52,689 nucleotides of DNA from Clostridiales bacterium (lineage in GTDB: Bacteria; Bacillota; Clostridia; Oscillospirales; Oscillospiraceae). A program made the position numbers and the translations under genes. The DNA is taken from assembly GCA_022787565.1 (NCBI GenBank), contig JALFVN010000046.1, forward strand, positions 1-52,689. Direction: 5' to 3'. Below the pieces are notes generated by a model. The model saw nothing but the letters and a program-made list of their open reading frames with translations, was not told the origin of the DNA and made no database searches. Below, one piece after another: positions 9,140 to 52,689 of this stretch (the stretch's first letter is position 1; each line of letters opens with the position of its first letter).

Positions 9140-9625
9140 ATGGAATACACCGCAGCGGTTGTTACCGTAAGCGATAAGTGCTGCCGGGGCGAACAGGAGG
9201 ACACCGGCGGCCCCGCCGTCTGCGCCATGCTGGAGGAGCATGGCTGGAAGCTGATCTATAAGAGCTTGGTGCCAAACGAGATGGAGACGATCAAAACCGA
9301 GCTGATGAAATGCGCTGACGAGATAAAGGCGTCTCTTGTGCTGACAGTCGGCGGCACCGGCTTCTCCCCCCGGGACGTGACCCCCGAGGCCACTCTGGCC
9401 GTGGTGGAGCGGGAGACCCGGGGCATCCCCGAGGCCATGCGCTATGCCAGTCTGCAGATCACGCCCAGAGGCTGCCTGTCCCGCAGCGCGGCGGGCATTC
9501 TGGGCCGCACCCTCATCGTCAACCTGCCCGGCAGCGAAAAGGCCGCAAAGGAAAACCTGGCCGCCGTCATCGATCCCATCCGCCACGGGGTGGATATGCT
9601 GGCTGCCTCCGGAGATTCCCAATAA
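9140..9625 (+). CDS. moaB: MogA/MoaB-type molybdopterin adenylyltransferase
   Basis: Adenylates molybdopterin before metal insertion. Family marks: VVTVSDKCCRGEQEDTGGPA at the N-terminus, LTVGGTGFSPRDVTPEA (the substrate loop) near residue 70, and LPGSEKAAKEN near the C-terminus. I place the start at ATG 9140, giving 161 residues. The ribosome site AAAGG (9126-9130) is 9 bases from this ATG but directly abuts the alternative ATG at 9131. The start then lies one base after the moaC stop. MoeA, MoaD, MoaE and molybdate transport genes are not in the window. Confidence 0.9.
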   Translation: MEYTAAVVTVSDKCCRGEQEDTGGPAVCAMLEEHGWKLIYKSLVPNEMETIKTELMKCADEIKASLVLTVGGTGFSPRDVTPEATLAVVERETRGIPEAMRYASLQITPRGCLSRSAAGILGRTLIVNLPGSEKAAKENLAAVIDPIRHGVDMLAASGDSQ

Positions 9626-11419: not shown

Positions 11420-12595
11420 ATGAGCAAAATTGACCGTCAGGTAAAGGGCACGCTGCGCTTTGAAGTCTGCGGCGCCTGCCCGGAATCGGTGCTGAACGCC
11501 TGCGCCATGCAGGCAGTGGAGCTGATGGAGCTGGAGAGTATCGACAAGTGCACCCTGCGGGTGACGGTGTTTGAAAACCGGGCGGAGGAATTTCAGGCCC
11601 TTGCCCGCCGCTGCATGTGCGAGGCGGAGAAGCTGAGCCAGAGCGGCGGCAGCAAAAGCCGGAAACTGATCAAAAGGCGGCGGGCGCTGCTGCTCTTCGC
11701 CCTGCTGACGGCGGGGCTTCTGCTTCTCAGCTCTCTGTTCATCTGGGACATTCAGGTGCAGGGCTGCCGGAAGCTCAGTCCGGGCCAGGTGCTGCGGGCC
11801 CTTTCCGACTGCGGTGTGGAGCAGGGCAGCTTTCGCTTCGGCGTCAATTCCGACATGGTGCGAAGCCGGGTGATGGTGGAGCTGCCGGAGATCGCCTGGA
11901 TGACGGTGAACGTCCGGGGCTCCCGGGCCACGGTGCTGGTCATGGAGCGGGAGGAAAAGCCGGAAATTTATGCGGAGGCGGAGGCGGCGGACCTGGTAGC
12001 GACAAAGACCGGCATCGTCAAAAGCCTGTCGGTGCTCAGCGGCAAGACCCTGGTGCGCCCGGGCCAGGCCGTGACAGCGGGGGAAACCCTTGTCAGCGGC
12101 ACCGTGGACAGCATCACCGCCCTGCCCCGGCAGCTCCGATCCTCCGGCAGCGTCACGGCAGAGACCTGGACCGAACTTTGCGCCCTTCGCCCGGCTTCGG
12201 AACAGCAAAAAACGGGGGAGACAAAAAAATCTTTCCGTTTTGCCCTGAAATTCGGAGAAAAACGCATAAATTTGTATGTCAGTGGTAGAAATGCGCTTGA
12301 CGAGTGTGATAAAATCGTCTATGAGTATAAACTGGGCATAGAGGGGCTGTTTCTCCTGCCGGTGAGCATAATAAAGGAGGAGCTGTCCTTTTACCAAACC
12401 GAGACGCGGCCCAGCGCCGCCGGGGAAGAGATGAAGGAGGCCCTGCTTGCCTATCTCCGCCAGACCGTGGACGGGGAAGTGCTGGAGACGGATTTTTCCC
12501 TCAGCGACGGCGGGGAGCTGCTCTGCGTTACGTTATATGCCCACTGCCTGGAAAACATTGCGGAAACAAGAGAGATCAAACAGGAGGAGAGCTGA
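11420..12595 (+). CDS. yqfD: Sporulation protein YqfD
   Basis: Membrane-anchored sporulation protein of 391 residues, always paired with YqfC. Residues 1-85 form a cytoplasmic ferredoxin-like domain. One helix spans about 89-110 (RALLLFALLTAGLLLLSSLF). The outer part has a POTRA-like region (WDIQVQGCRKLSPGQVLRAL) followed by beta-rich segments ending near NLAETREIK. The conserved phrase KTGIVKSLSVLSGKTLVRPG matches the family. It starts one base after yqfC and ends 26 bases before phoH. The same yqfC-yqfD-phoH-ybeY-era order is found across spore formers. Confidence 0.88.
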   Translation: MSKIDRQVKGTLRFEVCGACPESVLNACAMQAVELMELESIDKCTLRVTVFENRAEEFQALARRCMCEAEKLSQSGGSKSRKLIKRRRALLLFALLTAGLLLLSSLFIWDIQVQGCRKLSPGQVLRALSDCGVEQGSFRFGVNSDMVRSRVMVELPEIAWMTVNVRGSRATVLVMEREEKPEIYAEAEAADLVATKTGIVKSLSVLSGKTLVRPGQAVTAGETLVSGTVDSITALPRQLRSSGSVTAETWTELCALRPASEQQKTGETKKSFRFALKFGEKRINLYVSGRNALDECDKIVYEYKLGIEGLFLLPVSIIKEELSFYQTETRPSAAGEEMKEALLAYLRQTVDGEVLETDFSLSDGGELLCVTLYAHCLENIAETREIKQEES

Positions 12596-16321: not shown

Positions 16322-18694
16322 ATGAGCTTTTTTGAAAAATCACTGATCACGCTGGAGCTGCCGGCAGTGCTGGCAATGCTGGCCCAGCAGGCGGTGGGGG
16401 AAACAGCCAAGGAGCAGGCCCTGGCTCTTACGCCCTCCGGCGACAGGGCGGAGGTCAAGCGCCGTCTGGACGAGACCACAGCCGCCAAAACCATGATGGT
16501 GGTCCGGGGCAGCCCTTCCTTTTCCGGCGTCAAGGACGTGCGCCCCTCATTGGCCCGGGCCGATCTGGGCGGCGCGCTGAACACCCGGGAGCTGCTGGAC
16601 ATTGCAAGGGTATTGCAGTGCGCCCGGCTGGTCCGGGGCTACATTGCCGACGACACCGTGGGCAAGACCCCCATCGACTACCTGTTTTACGCCCTCCACG
16701 CCAATAAATTTTTAGAGGAGAAGATCAACACCTCCATTGTGGGCGAGGACGAGATCGCCGACGGGGCCTCCCATGAACTGGCCTCCATCCGCCGCCAGAT
16801 GCGGGCAGCGGCCTCCCGGGCAAGGGACGCTCTGCAGAAGATCATCTCCTCACCCTCCTATGCCAAGGCCCTGCAGGAGCCCATCATCACCATGCGCTCC
16901 GACCGCTTTGTGGTGCCCGTAAAGGCCGACCATAAGGGCGCGGTGCCCGGCCTTGTCCATGACGTATCCGCCTCGGGCATGACCCTCTTTATCGAGCCCA
17001 TGGCCGCTGTCAAGGCCAATAACGAGCTGCGGGAGCTGGCCGCCAAGGAAAAGCTGGAGATCGAGCGAATCCTGGCCGAGCTTTCCGCCGACTGCGCCGG
17101 ACACCGGGACGATATCGACTCAGACTATCAGGTGCTGGTGCAGCTGGACCTGATCTTTGCCAAGGCCAAGCTGTCCTACAAGCTGGACTGCCAGGAGGCA
17201 AGCCTGGAAGGGGAGGGCATCGTCCTGCGCCGGGCAAGGCACCCGCTGCTGGACCAGGCCAAGGCCGTCCCCATCGATGTGGAGCTGGGGGAGAGCTTCG
17301 ACACCTTAGTGATCACCGGCCCCAACACCGGCGGCAAAACCGTCTCCTTAAAAACTATTGGCCTTCTGTCCGCCATGAACCAGTGCGGCCTGCATATCCC
17401 CGCCGCCGACGGCAGCAGTCTGCCCGTATTCAGCCACATTCTGGCCGACATCGGCGATGAGCAGAGCATTGAGCAGAATCTCTCCACCTTCTCCGCCCAC
17501 ATGACCAACATCGTCAGCATCCTTTCTGAATGTGACGAGCACTCCCTCATCCTCTTTGACGAGCTGGGCGCGGGCACCGACCCCACCGAGGGGGCGGCTC
17601 TGGCCATCTCCATCATCGAGTACGCCCGGCAGAAGGGGGCCATGATCGCCGCCACCACCCACTACGCGGAGCTGAAGGTCTATGCCACCAACGAGAAGGG
17701 TGTACAGAACGCCTCCTGCGAGTTCGATGTGGAGACCCTGCGGCCCACCTACCACCTGCTGGTGGGCATCCCCGGCAAGTCCAACGCCTTTGCCATCTCC
17801 CGGCGCTTAGGCTTGGGGGAGGACATCATCGAGGACGCCAGAAAGCGGGTGGGCACCGAGACGGCCAGCTTTGAGGCCACTATCGAAAAGCTGGAGCAGA
17901 CCCGAAGATTGCTGGAAAAGGACCGGAACGAGGCCGCCCAGAAGCTGCGCCAGGCGGAGGAGAACGCCAAAAAGGCCGCCTTCCTCAAGGCGGAGCTGGA
18001 GGTACGGCTGGAAAAGGCAGATCAGAAATCCCGCCGGGAGGCGGAGCGGATCATTGCCGAGGCCAGAGCCACCGCCGAGGAAACCTTTGCCCAGCTGGAC
18101 GAGATGAAAAAGCACGCCAACGAAGAGGACGACGCCCAGCGCATCAACGAGGCCCGAAGCGAGCTGCGCCGCCGCCTGAACCAGTCTGCGGAGGCCCTGC
18201 GCCCGACCCCGGAGCCGGTGGAGGACAGGAAGTCCGCCCGGCCGGTGAAGGTGGGCGACACGGTGCAGATCAAGTCCATGGGCATGAAGGCCACCGTCAC
18301 GGAGATCTCCTCCGACAGGATACTGACGCTGCGGGCGGGCATAATGAATGTAACGGCCCGGGAGGACGAGGTACTGCTGATCGAAGGCAAGCCGGCGCCG
18401 GACAAAAAAACCGTATCCGCCAACAGCAGTGCCCAGCTGCGCCTGATGCATGTGGAGCCCCAGATCGACCTGCGGGGCATGGAGGCCATCGAGGCCGTCA
18501 CCGCCGCCGAGCGCTATATCGACAGCGCCGTTATGGCAAAGCTCAGCGCTGTCACCATCATCCACGGCAAGGGCACCGGCGCTCTCCGCACCGCCGTTCA
18601 GCAGATGCTCCGGCGGAACAAAGCGGTCAAATCCTTCCGTTTGGGCCGTTACGGCGAGGGCGAGACCGGCGTGACCGTTGTCGAACTGAAATAA
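16322..18694 (+). CDS. mutS2: MutS2 family ATPase/endonuclease
   Basis: A 790-residue MutS2 protein; in Firmicutes MutS2 (RqcU) rescues collided ribosomes and in other bacteria suppresses recombination. It has an N-terminal clamp and core (1-300), Walker A GPNTGGKT (about 333-340), and Walker B LILFDELGAGTDPTEGA. A long charged coiled coil follows (about 515-620). A KOW-like segment (RPVKVGDTVQIKS) comes next, then a C-terminal Smr nuclease domain (about 712-790) with LRGMEAIEA and IIHGKGTGAL. The mismatch-recognition domain of MutS1 is absent, as expected. It stands alone between a repeat gap and ptsH. Confidence 0.95.
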   Translation: MSFFEKSLITLELPAVLAMLAQQAVGETAKEQALALTPSGDRAEVKRRLDETTAAKTMMVVRGSPSFSGVKDVRPSLARADLGGALNTRELLDIARVLQCARLVRGYIADDTVGKTPIDYLFYALHANKFLEEKINTSIVGEDEIADGASHELASIRRQMRAAASRARDALQKIISSPSYAKALQEPIITMRSDRFVVPVKADHKGAVPGLVHDVSASGMTLFIEPMAAVKANNELRELAAKEKLEIERILAELSADCAGHRDDIDSDYQVLVQLDLIFAKAKLSYKLDCQEASLEGEGIVLRRARHPLLDQAKAVPIDVELGESFDTLVITGPNTGGKTVSLKTIGLLSAMNQCGLHIPAADGSSLPVFSHILADIGDEQSIEQNLSTFSAHMTNIVSILSECDEHSLILFDELGAGTDPTEGAALAISIIEYARQKGAMIAATTHYAELKVYATNEKGVQNASCEFDVETLRPTYHLLVGIPGKSNAFAISRRLGLGEDIIEDARKRVGTETASFEATIEKLEQTRRLLEKDRNEAAQKLRQAEENAKKAAFLKAELEVRLEKADQKSRREAERIIAEARATAEETFAQLDEMKKHANEEDDAQRINEARSELRRRLNQSAEALRPTPEPVEDRKSARPVKVGDTVQIKSMGMKATVTEISSDRILTLRAGIMNVTAREDEVLLIEGKPAPDKKTVSANSSAQLRLMHVEPQIDLRGMEAIEAVTAAERYIDSAVMAKLSAVTIIHGKGTGALRTAVQQMLRRNKAVKSFRLGRYGEGETGVTVVELK

Positions 18695-51276: not shown

Positions 51277-51424
51277 TTACCCCGCCGTGCCCGGCATATT
51301 CTCAATATAAATTCCATACCCTCTCGTCGGATCATTCACCAAAACGTGCGTCACCGCGCCCACCAGTTTACCGTCCTGTATAATCGGACTGCCGCTCAAT
51401 CCCTGTACGGTCCCGCAGTTGTCG
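51277..51424 (-). pseudogene. spoIVB: 3' remnant of spoIVB
   Basis: On the minus strand, the frame ending at TAA 51277-51279 encodes the C-terminal end of the SpoIVB serine peptidase. It includes [20 protein letters not shown] (with the catalytic Ser of the Ser-Gly-Ser motif), [19 protein letters not shown] and the closing Pro-Gly-Thr-Ala-Gly. Only about 45 residues match; upstream of Gly-Thr-Val-Gln-Gly the frame reads unrelated sequence and no start or PDZ domain remains. SpoIVB signals pro-sigma-K processing, so finding its tail beside sigK is notable. It is a dead fragment left by recombination or duplication; an intact copy should exist elsewhere. Confidence 0.75.
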
Positions 51425-51479: not shown

Positions 51480-51917
51480 ATGGTGGAGACCGCGTTTATT
51501 CTGCTGATGAACAGCCTGCTGCTGATGCTGCGCATTGCCCCCGGGGATTCTTTCCCCAAACCTCTGAGCCGGACCGAGGAGCAGGAATATCTGGCCCGCT
51601 GGGCCCGGGGCGATGTGGAGGCCAGAAACCTGCTGGTGGAGCATAATCTCCGCCTGGTAGCGCACATTATGAAAAAATATTACACCCAGACCGACGATGT
51701 GGACGATCTGATTTCCATCGGAACCATAGGCCTGATCAAGGGCGTGAACACCTACAAGCCCGACAAAGGCGTGCGCCTTGCGACCTATGCAAGCCGCTGT
51801 ATTGAAAATGCTATACTATCTCAGCGGAACAAACGGCGGTTGAGGCGGCGGAACGGGTGTCTTTTGAGGCAAAATGGCGCCTGCTGGCGAGAGTGGGAGT
51901 CCGCTGCTATATTCTGA
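51480..51917 (+). CDS. sigK: Pro-sigma-K, N-terminal half, interrupted after codon 110
   Basis: Late mother-cell sporulation sigma factor. The start is ATG 51480 with GGAGGTGA upstream. The first 20 residues are hydrophobic (MVETAFILLMNSLLLML), the cleavable pro-sequence. Sigma region 2 follows: PLSRTEEQEYLARWARGD, NLLVEHNLRLVAHIMKKYY, DDLISIGTIGLIKGVNTYKP and ATYASRCIEN. The match ends abruptly at Asn110 (codon 51807-51809). Then come 35 unrelated basic residues and a stop. Regions 3 and 4 are absent. The break point matches that of B. subtilis spoIVCB, where the skin element splits sigK. Without excision the product would be inactive. Confidence 0.88.
   Translation: MVETAFILLMNSLLLMLRIAPGDSFPKPLSRTEEQEYLARWARGDVEARNLLVEHNLRLVAHIMKKYYTQTDDVDDLISIGTIGLIKGVNTYKPDKGVRLATYASRCIENAILSQRNKRRLRRRNGCLLRQNGACWREWESAAIF
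51802..51816 (+). other. Putative left attachment site of a sigK intervening element
   Basis: Conserved sigK sequence ends inside TTGAAAATGCTATAC. The B. subtilis recombination core lies in the corresponding Ile-Glu-Asn-Glu codons and contains AATGA; here AATG is kept and the next base differs. The exact core cannot be fixed without the right-hand junction, which is outside the window. Confidence 0.55.
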
Positions 51918-52435
51918 TTTCCAATGTATCAGGTGCGGTAAAAGTAGCCCCGCTCCAGATTCTTCAATTTCCGGTGGTGCTGCCGCACAAGTTTCAGGAC
52001 GCGGAAAAGTTCAATTTGCAGTTCTCAGACTTCTCAGAAATTACCGAAACAGCGGACAAGCTGCGCTGGCTTCGATACCAGAAAGGCCTGCGCCAGAGAG
52101 ATGTTGCAGACTACGCAGGGATAGACCGGAGCACCTATGTCCACTATGAAGAATACGGAAAAGACCTCTATCCGCTAGAGCACATGGAGAAAATCGCGCA
52201 GCTTTTTGAAGTGCCGGTCGATACGCTTCTGGATGACTACAATCTATTTCTGAGGAATGGTCAGGGCAACCAGATCAAGGCAATCCGAATGAAACTGGGG
52301 CTGACGCAAAAACAATATGCGGACAAGCTGGGCGTCAGTCTTGGAAATCTCAAGCATTGGGAGCAAAACCGCAAGCAGATTTTCAAATCCACATGGGAGA
52401 AGTATTTCAAACAGAGTCTTGAAAGCCGTAAATAA
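51857..52435 (+). CDS. Regulator with two XRE-type helix-turn-helix domains, start uncertain
   Basis: Two Cro/C1-type domains are clear: LRWLRYQKGLRQRDVADYAG with IDRSTYVHYEE, and IKAIRMKLGLTQKQYADKLG with VSLGNLKHWEQNRKQ. Between them is the usual PLEHMEKIAQLFEVPVDTLL. The frame opens at GTG 51857, but there is no ribosome site there or at later GTG/TTG codons. The first 35 residues look unlike the rest; recognisable protein begins around LQILQFPVVLPHKF. The gene may have lost its true 5' end at the sigK junction. The likely role is a repressor of the inserted element, or a decayed copy. Confidence 0.7.
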   Translation: MSFEAKWRLLARVGVRCYILISNVSGAVKVAPLQILQFPVVLPHKFQDAEKFNLQFSDFSEITETADKLRWLRYQKGLRQRDVADYAGIDRSTYVHYEEYGKDLYPLEHMEKIAQLFEVPVDTLLDDYNLFLRNGQGNQIKAIRMKLGLTQKQYADKLGVSLGNLKHWEQNRKQIFKSTWEKYFKQSLESRK

Positions 52436-52478
52436 TTCCGATAGAATTATTACAGAATCATTCAGGAGATACAGACCC

Positions 52479-52682
52479 ATGATTATTAAATCTTCGACTG
52501 CACTGTGTAACGACTACAGCATGGTCTCTGATCTGGCGCATGAAAAAGCCGAACAGCATGAGGAAACCTTGAAGCTGCGCGCAAAGCTGGAGGCAGCAGA
52601 GGCCGCTCGGCTTTCCGGCGCACCTGCCTACACGTTGGAGGAATCCAGAAAACGGTTGGAGGCAATCTATCAGCGTGACTGA
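52479..52682 (+). CDS. Phd/YefM-type antitoxin with internal deletion
   Basis: 67 residues from ATG 52479 (AGGAG 10 bases upstream). The start MIIKSSTALCNDYSMVSDLA matches the N-terminus of Phd/YefM antitoxins. The end, EETLKLRAKLEAAEAARLSG with YTLEESRKRLEAIY, matches the toxin-binding C-terminal helices of the same proteins. Missing is the middle, about 25 residues usually reading like Pro-x-x-Ile-Thr-Lys-Asn-Gly-x-Gly and a Met-Ser-Ile-Glu strand, which forms the fold core. A RelE/ParE toxin gene would be expected just past the window. The protein may keep toxin binding but not DNA binding, or may be inactive. Confidence 0.65.
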   Translation: MIIKSSTALCNDYSMVSDLAHEKAEQHEETLKLRAKLEAAEAARLSGAPAYTLEESRKRLEAIYQRD

Positions 52683-52689
52683 CCTTGCG

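What the first reader, a model, noticed from the sequence alone, without database searches (positions are those of the whole stretch)
51480..52689. sigK split at the skin-element position: left edge of a new sigK intervening element
The pro-sigma-K gene is intact through its pro-sequence and region 2, then ends at Asn110 followed by foreign sequence. In B. subtilis (and, at the same conserved site, C. difficile) a prophage-like skin element interrupts sigK in the codons just after Ile-Glu-Asn and is excised in the mother cell by a serine recombinase. The coincidence of breakpoint strongly suggests a developmentally excised element here. The first element genes seen are a two-HTH regulator and an antitoxin relic. 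A sigK switch of this kind in this lineage would link spore formation to a mobile element.
Basis: partly seen in the sequence, partly recalled or inferred. Interest (0 to 1): 0.9.

Follow-up and report, generated by a model that had tools for sequence, protein, structure and literature searches.

The report
Sporulation gene split by mobile DNA
A gene this uncultured bacterium would need late in spore formation is cut in two by a mobile DNA element that carries its own recombinase, and some related bacteria have the same gene cut twice, so two elements would have to leave before the gene could work.

Summary
The window is a whole contig (C2, 52,689 bp). sigK is intact to Asn110 (51807-51809), then foreign DNA begins. 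The predicted 3' half is in the same genome, near the end of contig C63, directly behind the C-terminal 361 aa of a large serine recombinase (LSR). No contiguous sigK was found. Joining the flanks at the shared AATG in a script gives a 230-aa SigK scoring like congeners' intact SigK. The middle of the element is not assembled.

Survey: 73 of the 80 LSR relatives kept (of 263 found) lie at most 335 bp upstream of a sigK 3' part. In the window's genus (102 genomes) sigK is contiguous in 62, split in 10, partial in 1, not found in 29. Two congeners, Oscillibacter sp. ER4 and others have sigK interrupted twice; in seven of nine such cases two unlike LSRs are seen. A 55-72 aa protein without a known family is in all 19 elements whose left part is in view, and in the genus it tracks split sigK. 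I propose it as the excision factor.

The window's element is a new member of the skin kind. Doubly split sigK looks like a new variant. Excision in the mother cell is inferred, not shown.

The parts
51480..51809 (+). 5' part of sigK (codons 1-110, to Asn110), with a hydrophobic pro-like N terminus and region 2
   Evidence: TIGR02846 E 5.8e-46; Sigma70_r2 E 3.3e-17; sequence
51807..51810 (.). AATG, shared by left (window) and right (C63) junctions; recombination core
   Evidence: left ..GAAAATGCTATACT.., right ..AGCGAATGAGATACTG..
51810..51827 (+). element-side arm of attL; imperfect inverted repeat (14 of 18) of the arm before the core on C63
   Evidence: 0 of 20,000 shuffles reach 14 matches; arms chosen by eye
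51857..52435 (+). left-edge element gene: 192-aa regulator with two HTH domains
   Evidence: HTH_3 E 2e-17, two stretches; left-edge homologue in 8 of 18 complete elements at E 5e-12 or better
   Evidence: no NCBIfam or Pfam match

Best explanation
The window's right end is the left edge of a mobile element inserted in sigK between codons 110 and 111, of the sigK-intervening (skin) kind. Its LSR gene lies at the other end and abuts the 3' half of sigK, on contig C63 of the same genome. As inferred from the C. difficile and B. subtilis systems, during sporulation an excision factor turns the LSR towards attL x attR recombination in the mother cell. The element leaves as a circle, the two sigK pieces join in frame at AATG, and sigma-K can be made. 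The mother cell dies, so the spore keeps the element. Shown by sequence: both sigK halves, the C-terminal part of the LSR, the shared core, inverted arms, in-frame joining, and purifying selection on both halves. Inferred: excision itself, its timing and cell type, and the excision factor. For the factor I propose the small protein family found in related elements; this genome's copy, if any, lies in the unassembled middle.
For: 3' half and LSR end in the same genome. LSR domains: Recombinase and zinc ribbon in the 361-aa part, PHROG integrase. A near-identical LSR in an IMG/VR contig (96% over 142 aa) has the N-terminal part and puts full length near 569 aa. The joined gene encodes 230 aa and scores 422.9 bits against 352-429 for 27 intact relatives, which are also the sequences the HMM was built from. 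dN is far below dS in both halves in six comparisons, with dS near saturation. attP-like arms match at 14 of 18. 73 of the 80 LSR relatives kept lie directly upstream of a sigK 3' part. A left-edge HTH homologue is in 8 of 18 complete elements. A sigE-like gene, spoIIID and full-length spoIVB are present.
Against: The two halves are on separate contigs and the middle, including the LSR catalytic domain, is missing from the bin, so an active LSR in this genome is not shown. The candidate excision factor was not found in this genome. No read, expression or excision data were available. The left-edge HTH gene is not universal: 10 of 18 complete elements lack a convincing left-edge homologue, and four of the five congeners with a left edge fetched gave no match at 1e-6, the fifth (G097) only a 37% match over 60 aa. 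The first start codon of the window's HTH ORF is GTG.
Confidence: 0.85

Rival explanations
1. Assembly or binning artefact: C2 ends in a chimera and the C63 3' half belongs to something else.
For: Both are contig ends in a draft genome with 4.04% estimated contamination.
Against: Both junctions share AATG and carry opposed arms of one inverted repeat. The halves join in frame to a SigK typical of the genus. The left-edge gene and LSR resemble those of other genomes where both sigK ends are present on one contig.
Confidence: 0.04
2. Dead insertion: sigK is a pseudogene in a lineage that has stopped sporulating.
For: 29 of 102 genus genomes have no sigK at the threshold used; many are incomplete, but some are over 90% complete.
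Against: Both halves show purifying selection, no stop or frameshift disturbs the joined frame, and spoIIID, spoIVB and a sigE-like gene are present.
Confidence: 0.06
3. An ordinary prophage or mobile island that uses sigK as its attachment site and leaves only for its own transfer, without developmental control.
For: An infectious phage identical to a sigK-integrated prophage is described, and another is cited (PMC13141910 passages). The gene content of the middle is unknown here.
Against: Many relatives are small (17 complete elements of 2.6-11.5 kb), unlike full prophages. A sporulating host with no sigK copy other than the split one would need excision. Not excluded, and partly compatible with the best explanation.
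Confidence: 0.12

Closest known systems
skin of Clostridioides difficile (skinCd; LSR CD1231, excision factor CD1234)
   Same: Splits sigK; the LSR gene lies immediately upstream of the sigK 3' part (PMC5025042 passages).
   Different: C. [quoted passage not shown] CD1231 was not available to align, so LSR kinship and exact site were not compared.
skin of Bacillus subtilis (SpoIVCA, Skr) and B. cereus group sigK insertions
   Same: sigK split by an element with its own LSR; AATGA core in B. subtilis and some B. cereus strains (PMC10745906 passages).
   Different: There the LSR lies next to the 5' part (in the opposite direction in B. cereus biovar anthracis, which the paper says is similar in B. 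subtilis). Here it lies next to the 3' part, in the same direction. B. cereus positions are nt 195 and 423.
Other sporulation-gene elements: SP-beta in spsM, gin in gerE, yin in yabG
   Same: LSR-borne elements in sporulation genes whose excision restores the gene (passages).
   Different: Different target genes; none of the passages seen describes two elements in one gene. PMC4191935 notes that spsM expression needs two rearrangements, but in two genes.
Interruption elements of heterocyst-forming cyanobacteria
   Same: Developmental excision restores interrupted genes; 10 of 87 interrupted genes held multiple elements, nifD of one strain four (PMC4874684 passages).
   Different: Different phylum, cell type and genes. 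It is the known precedent for one gene with several elements, so the doubly split state is not categorically new.

Membership tests
sigK-intervening (skin) element | sigK coding sequence split, both parts in the same genome | tested here: met
   5' part in the window, 3' part on C63
sigK-intervening (skin) element | element carries a site-specific recombinase | tested here: met
   C-terminal 361 aa of an LSR with Recombinase and zinc-ribbon domains; catalytic domain lies beyond the contig end
sigK-intervening (skin) element | short shared core; precise joining restores the frame | tested here: met
   AATG core and in-frame 230-aa SigK in a script; in silico only
sigK-intervening (skin) element | excised during sporulation in the mother cell | not testable with these tools
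   no reads or expression data
sigK-intervening (skin) element | element encodes an excision factor (RDF) | tested here: inconclusive
   candidate family found in relatives; not found in this genome, middle missing
sigK-intervening (skin) element | same insertion site as B. subtilis skin | tested here: inconclusive
   AATGA occurs at two sites in sigK; passages in PMC10745906 put strains with the B. subtilis core at nt 423
C. difficile-type skin | LSR gene immediately upstream of the sigK 3' part | tested here: met
   LSR stop codon overlaps the core at the 3' junction
C. difficile-type skin | LSR homologous to CD1231 | not tested
   CD1231 sequence not in hand

The most novel reading that the evidence does not exclude
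sigK is a multi-site hotspot for developmentally excised elements. In some lineages it is a three-piece gene whose product needs two independent excisions, a two-key control on the last mother-cell sigma factor, with an unrelated LSR serving each site (seen in seven of nine doubly split cases, among them two congeners of the window and Oscillibacter sp. ER4). A previously undescribed 55-72 aa protein family is the excision factor for the elements at the window's site.
Probability: 0.6. Interest if true: 0.82.

Novelty: new variant of a known kind. Interest (0 to 1): 0.68.

Why it matters
PMC5025042 (passage) calls skin elements 'an exception in clostridia'. Here one LSR family marks sigK elements in many Clostridia and Negativicutes records, including isolates. 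If the doubly split genes are functional, spore formation in these bacteria depends on two mobile elements leaving one gene, which makes it directly testable whether such elements act as timing devices or as parasites that only avoid harm. The smallest complete element is 2.6 kb, close to a minimal recombinase plus candidate excision factor.

Tried and rejected
Contig-end chimera and intact-sigK-elsewhere were tested and rejected. Missing LSR N terminus in other contigs of the bin: 11 resolvase-domain matches, none fits as the missing piece. The left-edge HTH protein found no relative in viral contigs. The LSR has only distant matches in the phage collection (17 records, all under 60% identity). 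A shared small protein for the region-4 elements was sought in four elements, with ORFs of two of them as reference; apart from the LSR and ORFs overlapping it, none was shared by three or more, so no excision factor is proposed for that family. L156 first looked doubly split, but its two pieces are adjacent and fit a frameshift. A structure of the candidate factor could not be obtained.

Full report
WHAT IS IN THE WINDOW. The window is the whole of contig C2 of a 77-contig draft genome. sigK begins at 51480 and is a good SigK to residue 110 (TIGR02846 E 5.8e-46). After Asn110 (51807-51809) the frame leaves SigK and stops at 51917. A 192-aa protein with two HTH domains follows (51857-52435), then a small unidentified ORF and the contig end.

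THE OTHER SIDE. A search of the same genome for sigma region 4 gave 52 matches at E<=10; one, on C63 near its end, reads IANEILMHFRSRKKSAGD... to the end of SigK. Upstream of it, in the same direction, is the C-terminal 361 aa of a large serine recombinase, open at the contig end. Its stop codon overlaps the junction: GAGGATAGCGAATGAGATACTG. Pfam finds the Recombinase and zinc-ribbon domains and PHROGs an integrase. The left junction reads ATTGAAAATGCTATACTATC, so AATG is shared. The element-side arms form an imperfect inverted repeat, 14 of 18, reached by 0 of 20,000 shuffles; in three other elements the match is 11, 14 and 12 of 18 (16, 0 and 6 shuffles of 20,000). The arms were picked by eye.

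DOES IT JOIN? Joining the flanks at AATG in a script gives 230 codons in frame, scoring 422.9 bits on a sigK HMM built from 27 intact relatives, which themselves score 352-429. Six codon comparisons with intact congeners give dN 0.09-0.15 against dS 0.93-1.66 for the 5' part, and dN 0.25-0.26 against dS 1.0-2.0 for the 3' part. dS is near saturation, so only the sign is safe. No second sigK was found.

WHAT IS MISSING. The middle of the element is not in the bin; none of the 11 resolvase-domain matches fits as the LSR's N terminus. An IMG/VR contig encodes a near-identical LSR (96% over 142 aa) with its N-terminal part and puts the full length near 569 aa.

A FAMILY OF sigK ELEMENTS. A scan of named genomes with an alignment of this LSR found 263 relatives and kept 80. 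Of the 80, 73 lie at most 335 bp upstream of a sigK 3' part. Of the 73, 65 parts run to the end of SigK (HMM position 226 or beyond), 6 are broken again, 1 looks like a frameshift and 1 is cut by the contig end. The 7 without are L106, L113, L116, L124, L132, L138 and L163; in L124 and L132 the 5' part of sigK lies next to the LSR in the opposite direction. In 17 loci the 5' and 3' parts are both present, bounding elements of 2.6 to 11.5 kb; ER4's is 15.3 kb. The window's left-edge HTH protein has a left-edge homologue at E 5e-12 or better in 8 of these 18 elements, not in the other 10.

CENSUS OF THE GENUS. Searching the 102 genomes of the window's genus with a consensus SigK (my hand count of its list, which was truncated below about E 1e-35): contiguous to query position 230 or beyond in 62 (stops flagged inside in 6), split in 10, partial in 1 (G116), no sigK in 29. 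The 10: at the window's site G000, G097, G114, G117, G118, G126; at a region-4 site G031 and G005; at both G070 and G094. In G117 both contigs end exactly at the junction and no element sequence is seen; in G114 only the 5' part and in G126 only the 3' part was found.

A SECOND SITE. In G031 and G005 sigK runs to ISRSYV, leaves the frame, and resumes 5.5 and 5.1 kb later as SRIEK or SRLEK, directly after an LSR gene of another family. That LSR has 21-29% identity to members of the window's LSR family in the matched stretches.

DOUBLY SPLIT sigK. All three pieces were found in five genomes. G070 is the genome that holds L139 (Clostridiales bacterium UBA1701), recognised because G063 and G070 give the same coordinates; its three pieces lie on one contig in order and direction (C19:35827-36204, 16784-17098, 9213-9293, all minus). 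The others are G094 (C5; C46), Oscillibacter sp. ER4 (C45; C100), a Selenomonadales MAG G064 (C31; C5, second element about 37.9 kb) and a Defluviitaleaceae MAG G065 (three contigs). Four more are incomplete: G067, G066 (Pelosinus MAG) and IMG/VR contigs L097 and L098. Some last pieces are short (21-28 codons; E 0.006 to 0.2) and rest on context: an LSR of the region-4 family, 71-74% identical to that of G031, lies just upstream in G070, ER4 and G067, and about 1.9 kb upstream in G094. L098's record ends with a 50% identical LSR. In G064 the second site is different (about HMM position 147), with an LSR on the opposite strand next to the middle piece, and L097 has an LSR on the opposite strand after its break near HMM position 225; both are unlike the window's LSR family (about 24% identity to the region-4 family, and not hit by the window's LSR). 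So two unlike LSRs are seen in seven of the nine. In G065 I found no second LSR in the stretches fetched; in G066 I did not look. Script joins of G070, G094, ER4 and G064 give full-length SigK (423, 410, 342 and 259 bits; the last two are below the intact controls, from less related hosts).

CANDIDATE EXCISION FACTOR. Two of the smallest elements (L172, L165) share a small protein on the opposite strand. jackhmmer, started from the L165 copy, found it in all 19 elements with the left part in view (17 complete, ER4, G070), always antisense to sigK, and in none of 4 partial stretches (window end, C63 end, and two overlapping pieces of one IMG/VR record). There is no convincing Pfam, PHROGs or NCBIfam match (12 members scanned; best E 0.0068). 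In the genus, an alignment of 12 hits G070, G094, G097, G114 and G118 (E 1e-29 to 5e-10), each beside the sigK 5' part, and weakly G099 (E 0.0018), which has contiguous sigK. It was not found in G000, G117 and G126, where that part of the element is not assembled, nor in the region-4-only genomes. In the wider order, 28 of 394 genomes gave 30 matches. 17 lie within about 1.5 kb of a sigK fragment (12) or this LSR (5). Of the other 13, with up to 10 kb each side, 6 lie near a sigK fragment, 1 (L310) near a contiguous sigK and 6 near neither, some at contig ends. At least one (L306, same contig as L170 by length) belongs to an element already in the jackhmmer set. Known factors are similarly small: CD1234 53 aa, Skr 64 aa.

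HOW IT LIKELY WORKS. As in C. difficile and B. subtilis: the LSR alone integrates; with an excision factor it joins attL to attR, circularises the element and restores sigK in the mother cell, which dies (PMC5025042, PMC6957869, PMC4191935; passages). In doubly split genes two separate systems would each have to act. Sequence shows the parts; excision and timing are inferred.

KNOWN OR NEW. sigK elements are known, at different sites in different species. PMC5025042 calls them an exception in clostridia. Several elements in one gene are known in cyanobacteria (PMC4874684). Six searches of the open library (listings, plus passages of some papers) showed me no report of sigK interrupted twice; none was aimed at the small protein itself. 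Subscription papers and PMC3442830 were not available. That the nt-423 position of B. cereus matches the G064 site is my inference from recalled B. subtilis numbering.

Noticed in passing
window 51295-51417 (-): A fragment matching the last ~41 positions of the SpoIVB peptidase family (76.7 bits) lies just upstream of sigK; a full-length copy is on C62. A spoIVB remnant beside sigK suggests past rearrangement.
   Followed up: partly
L094 and L095: sigK plus its region-4 element is inverted relative to its neighbours in G031 compared with G005 (gene names by eye).
   Followed up: no
L107 16714-16974; L221 5909-6169: Sporomusa ovata has a complete sigK 3' half and, 4.6 kb on, a second copy of the last part (HMM 144-232), as if a second element brought its own 3' end.
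   Followed up: partly
L124 2510-2860; L132 11747-11896: Members of the same LSR family lie next to the 5' part of sigK in the opposite direction, as if inserted the other way round.
   Followed up: no
L256 end and L257 end (G117): Both contigs end exactly at the sigK junction with no element sequence, as expected if the sample mixes split and unsplit copies.
   Followed up: no
L168 11691-12041: A record titled Faecalibacterium prausnitzii has a sigK 3' part after this LSR; I recall this species as not known to sporulate.
   Followed up: no
L310 9897 and 11788-12441: The candidate excision factor lies 2 kb from a contiguous sigK, perhaps a leftover.
   Followed up: no
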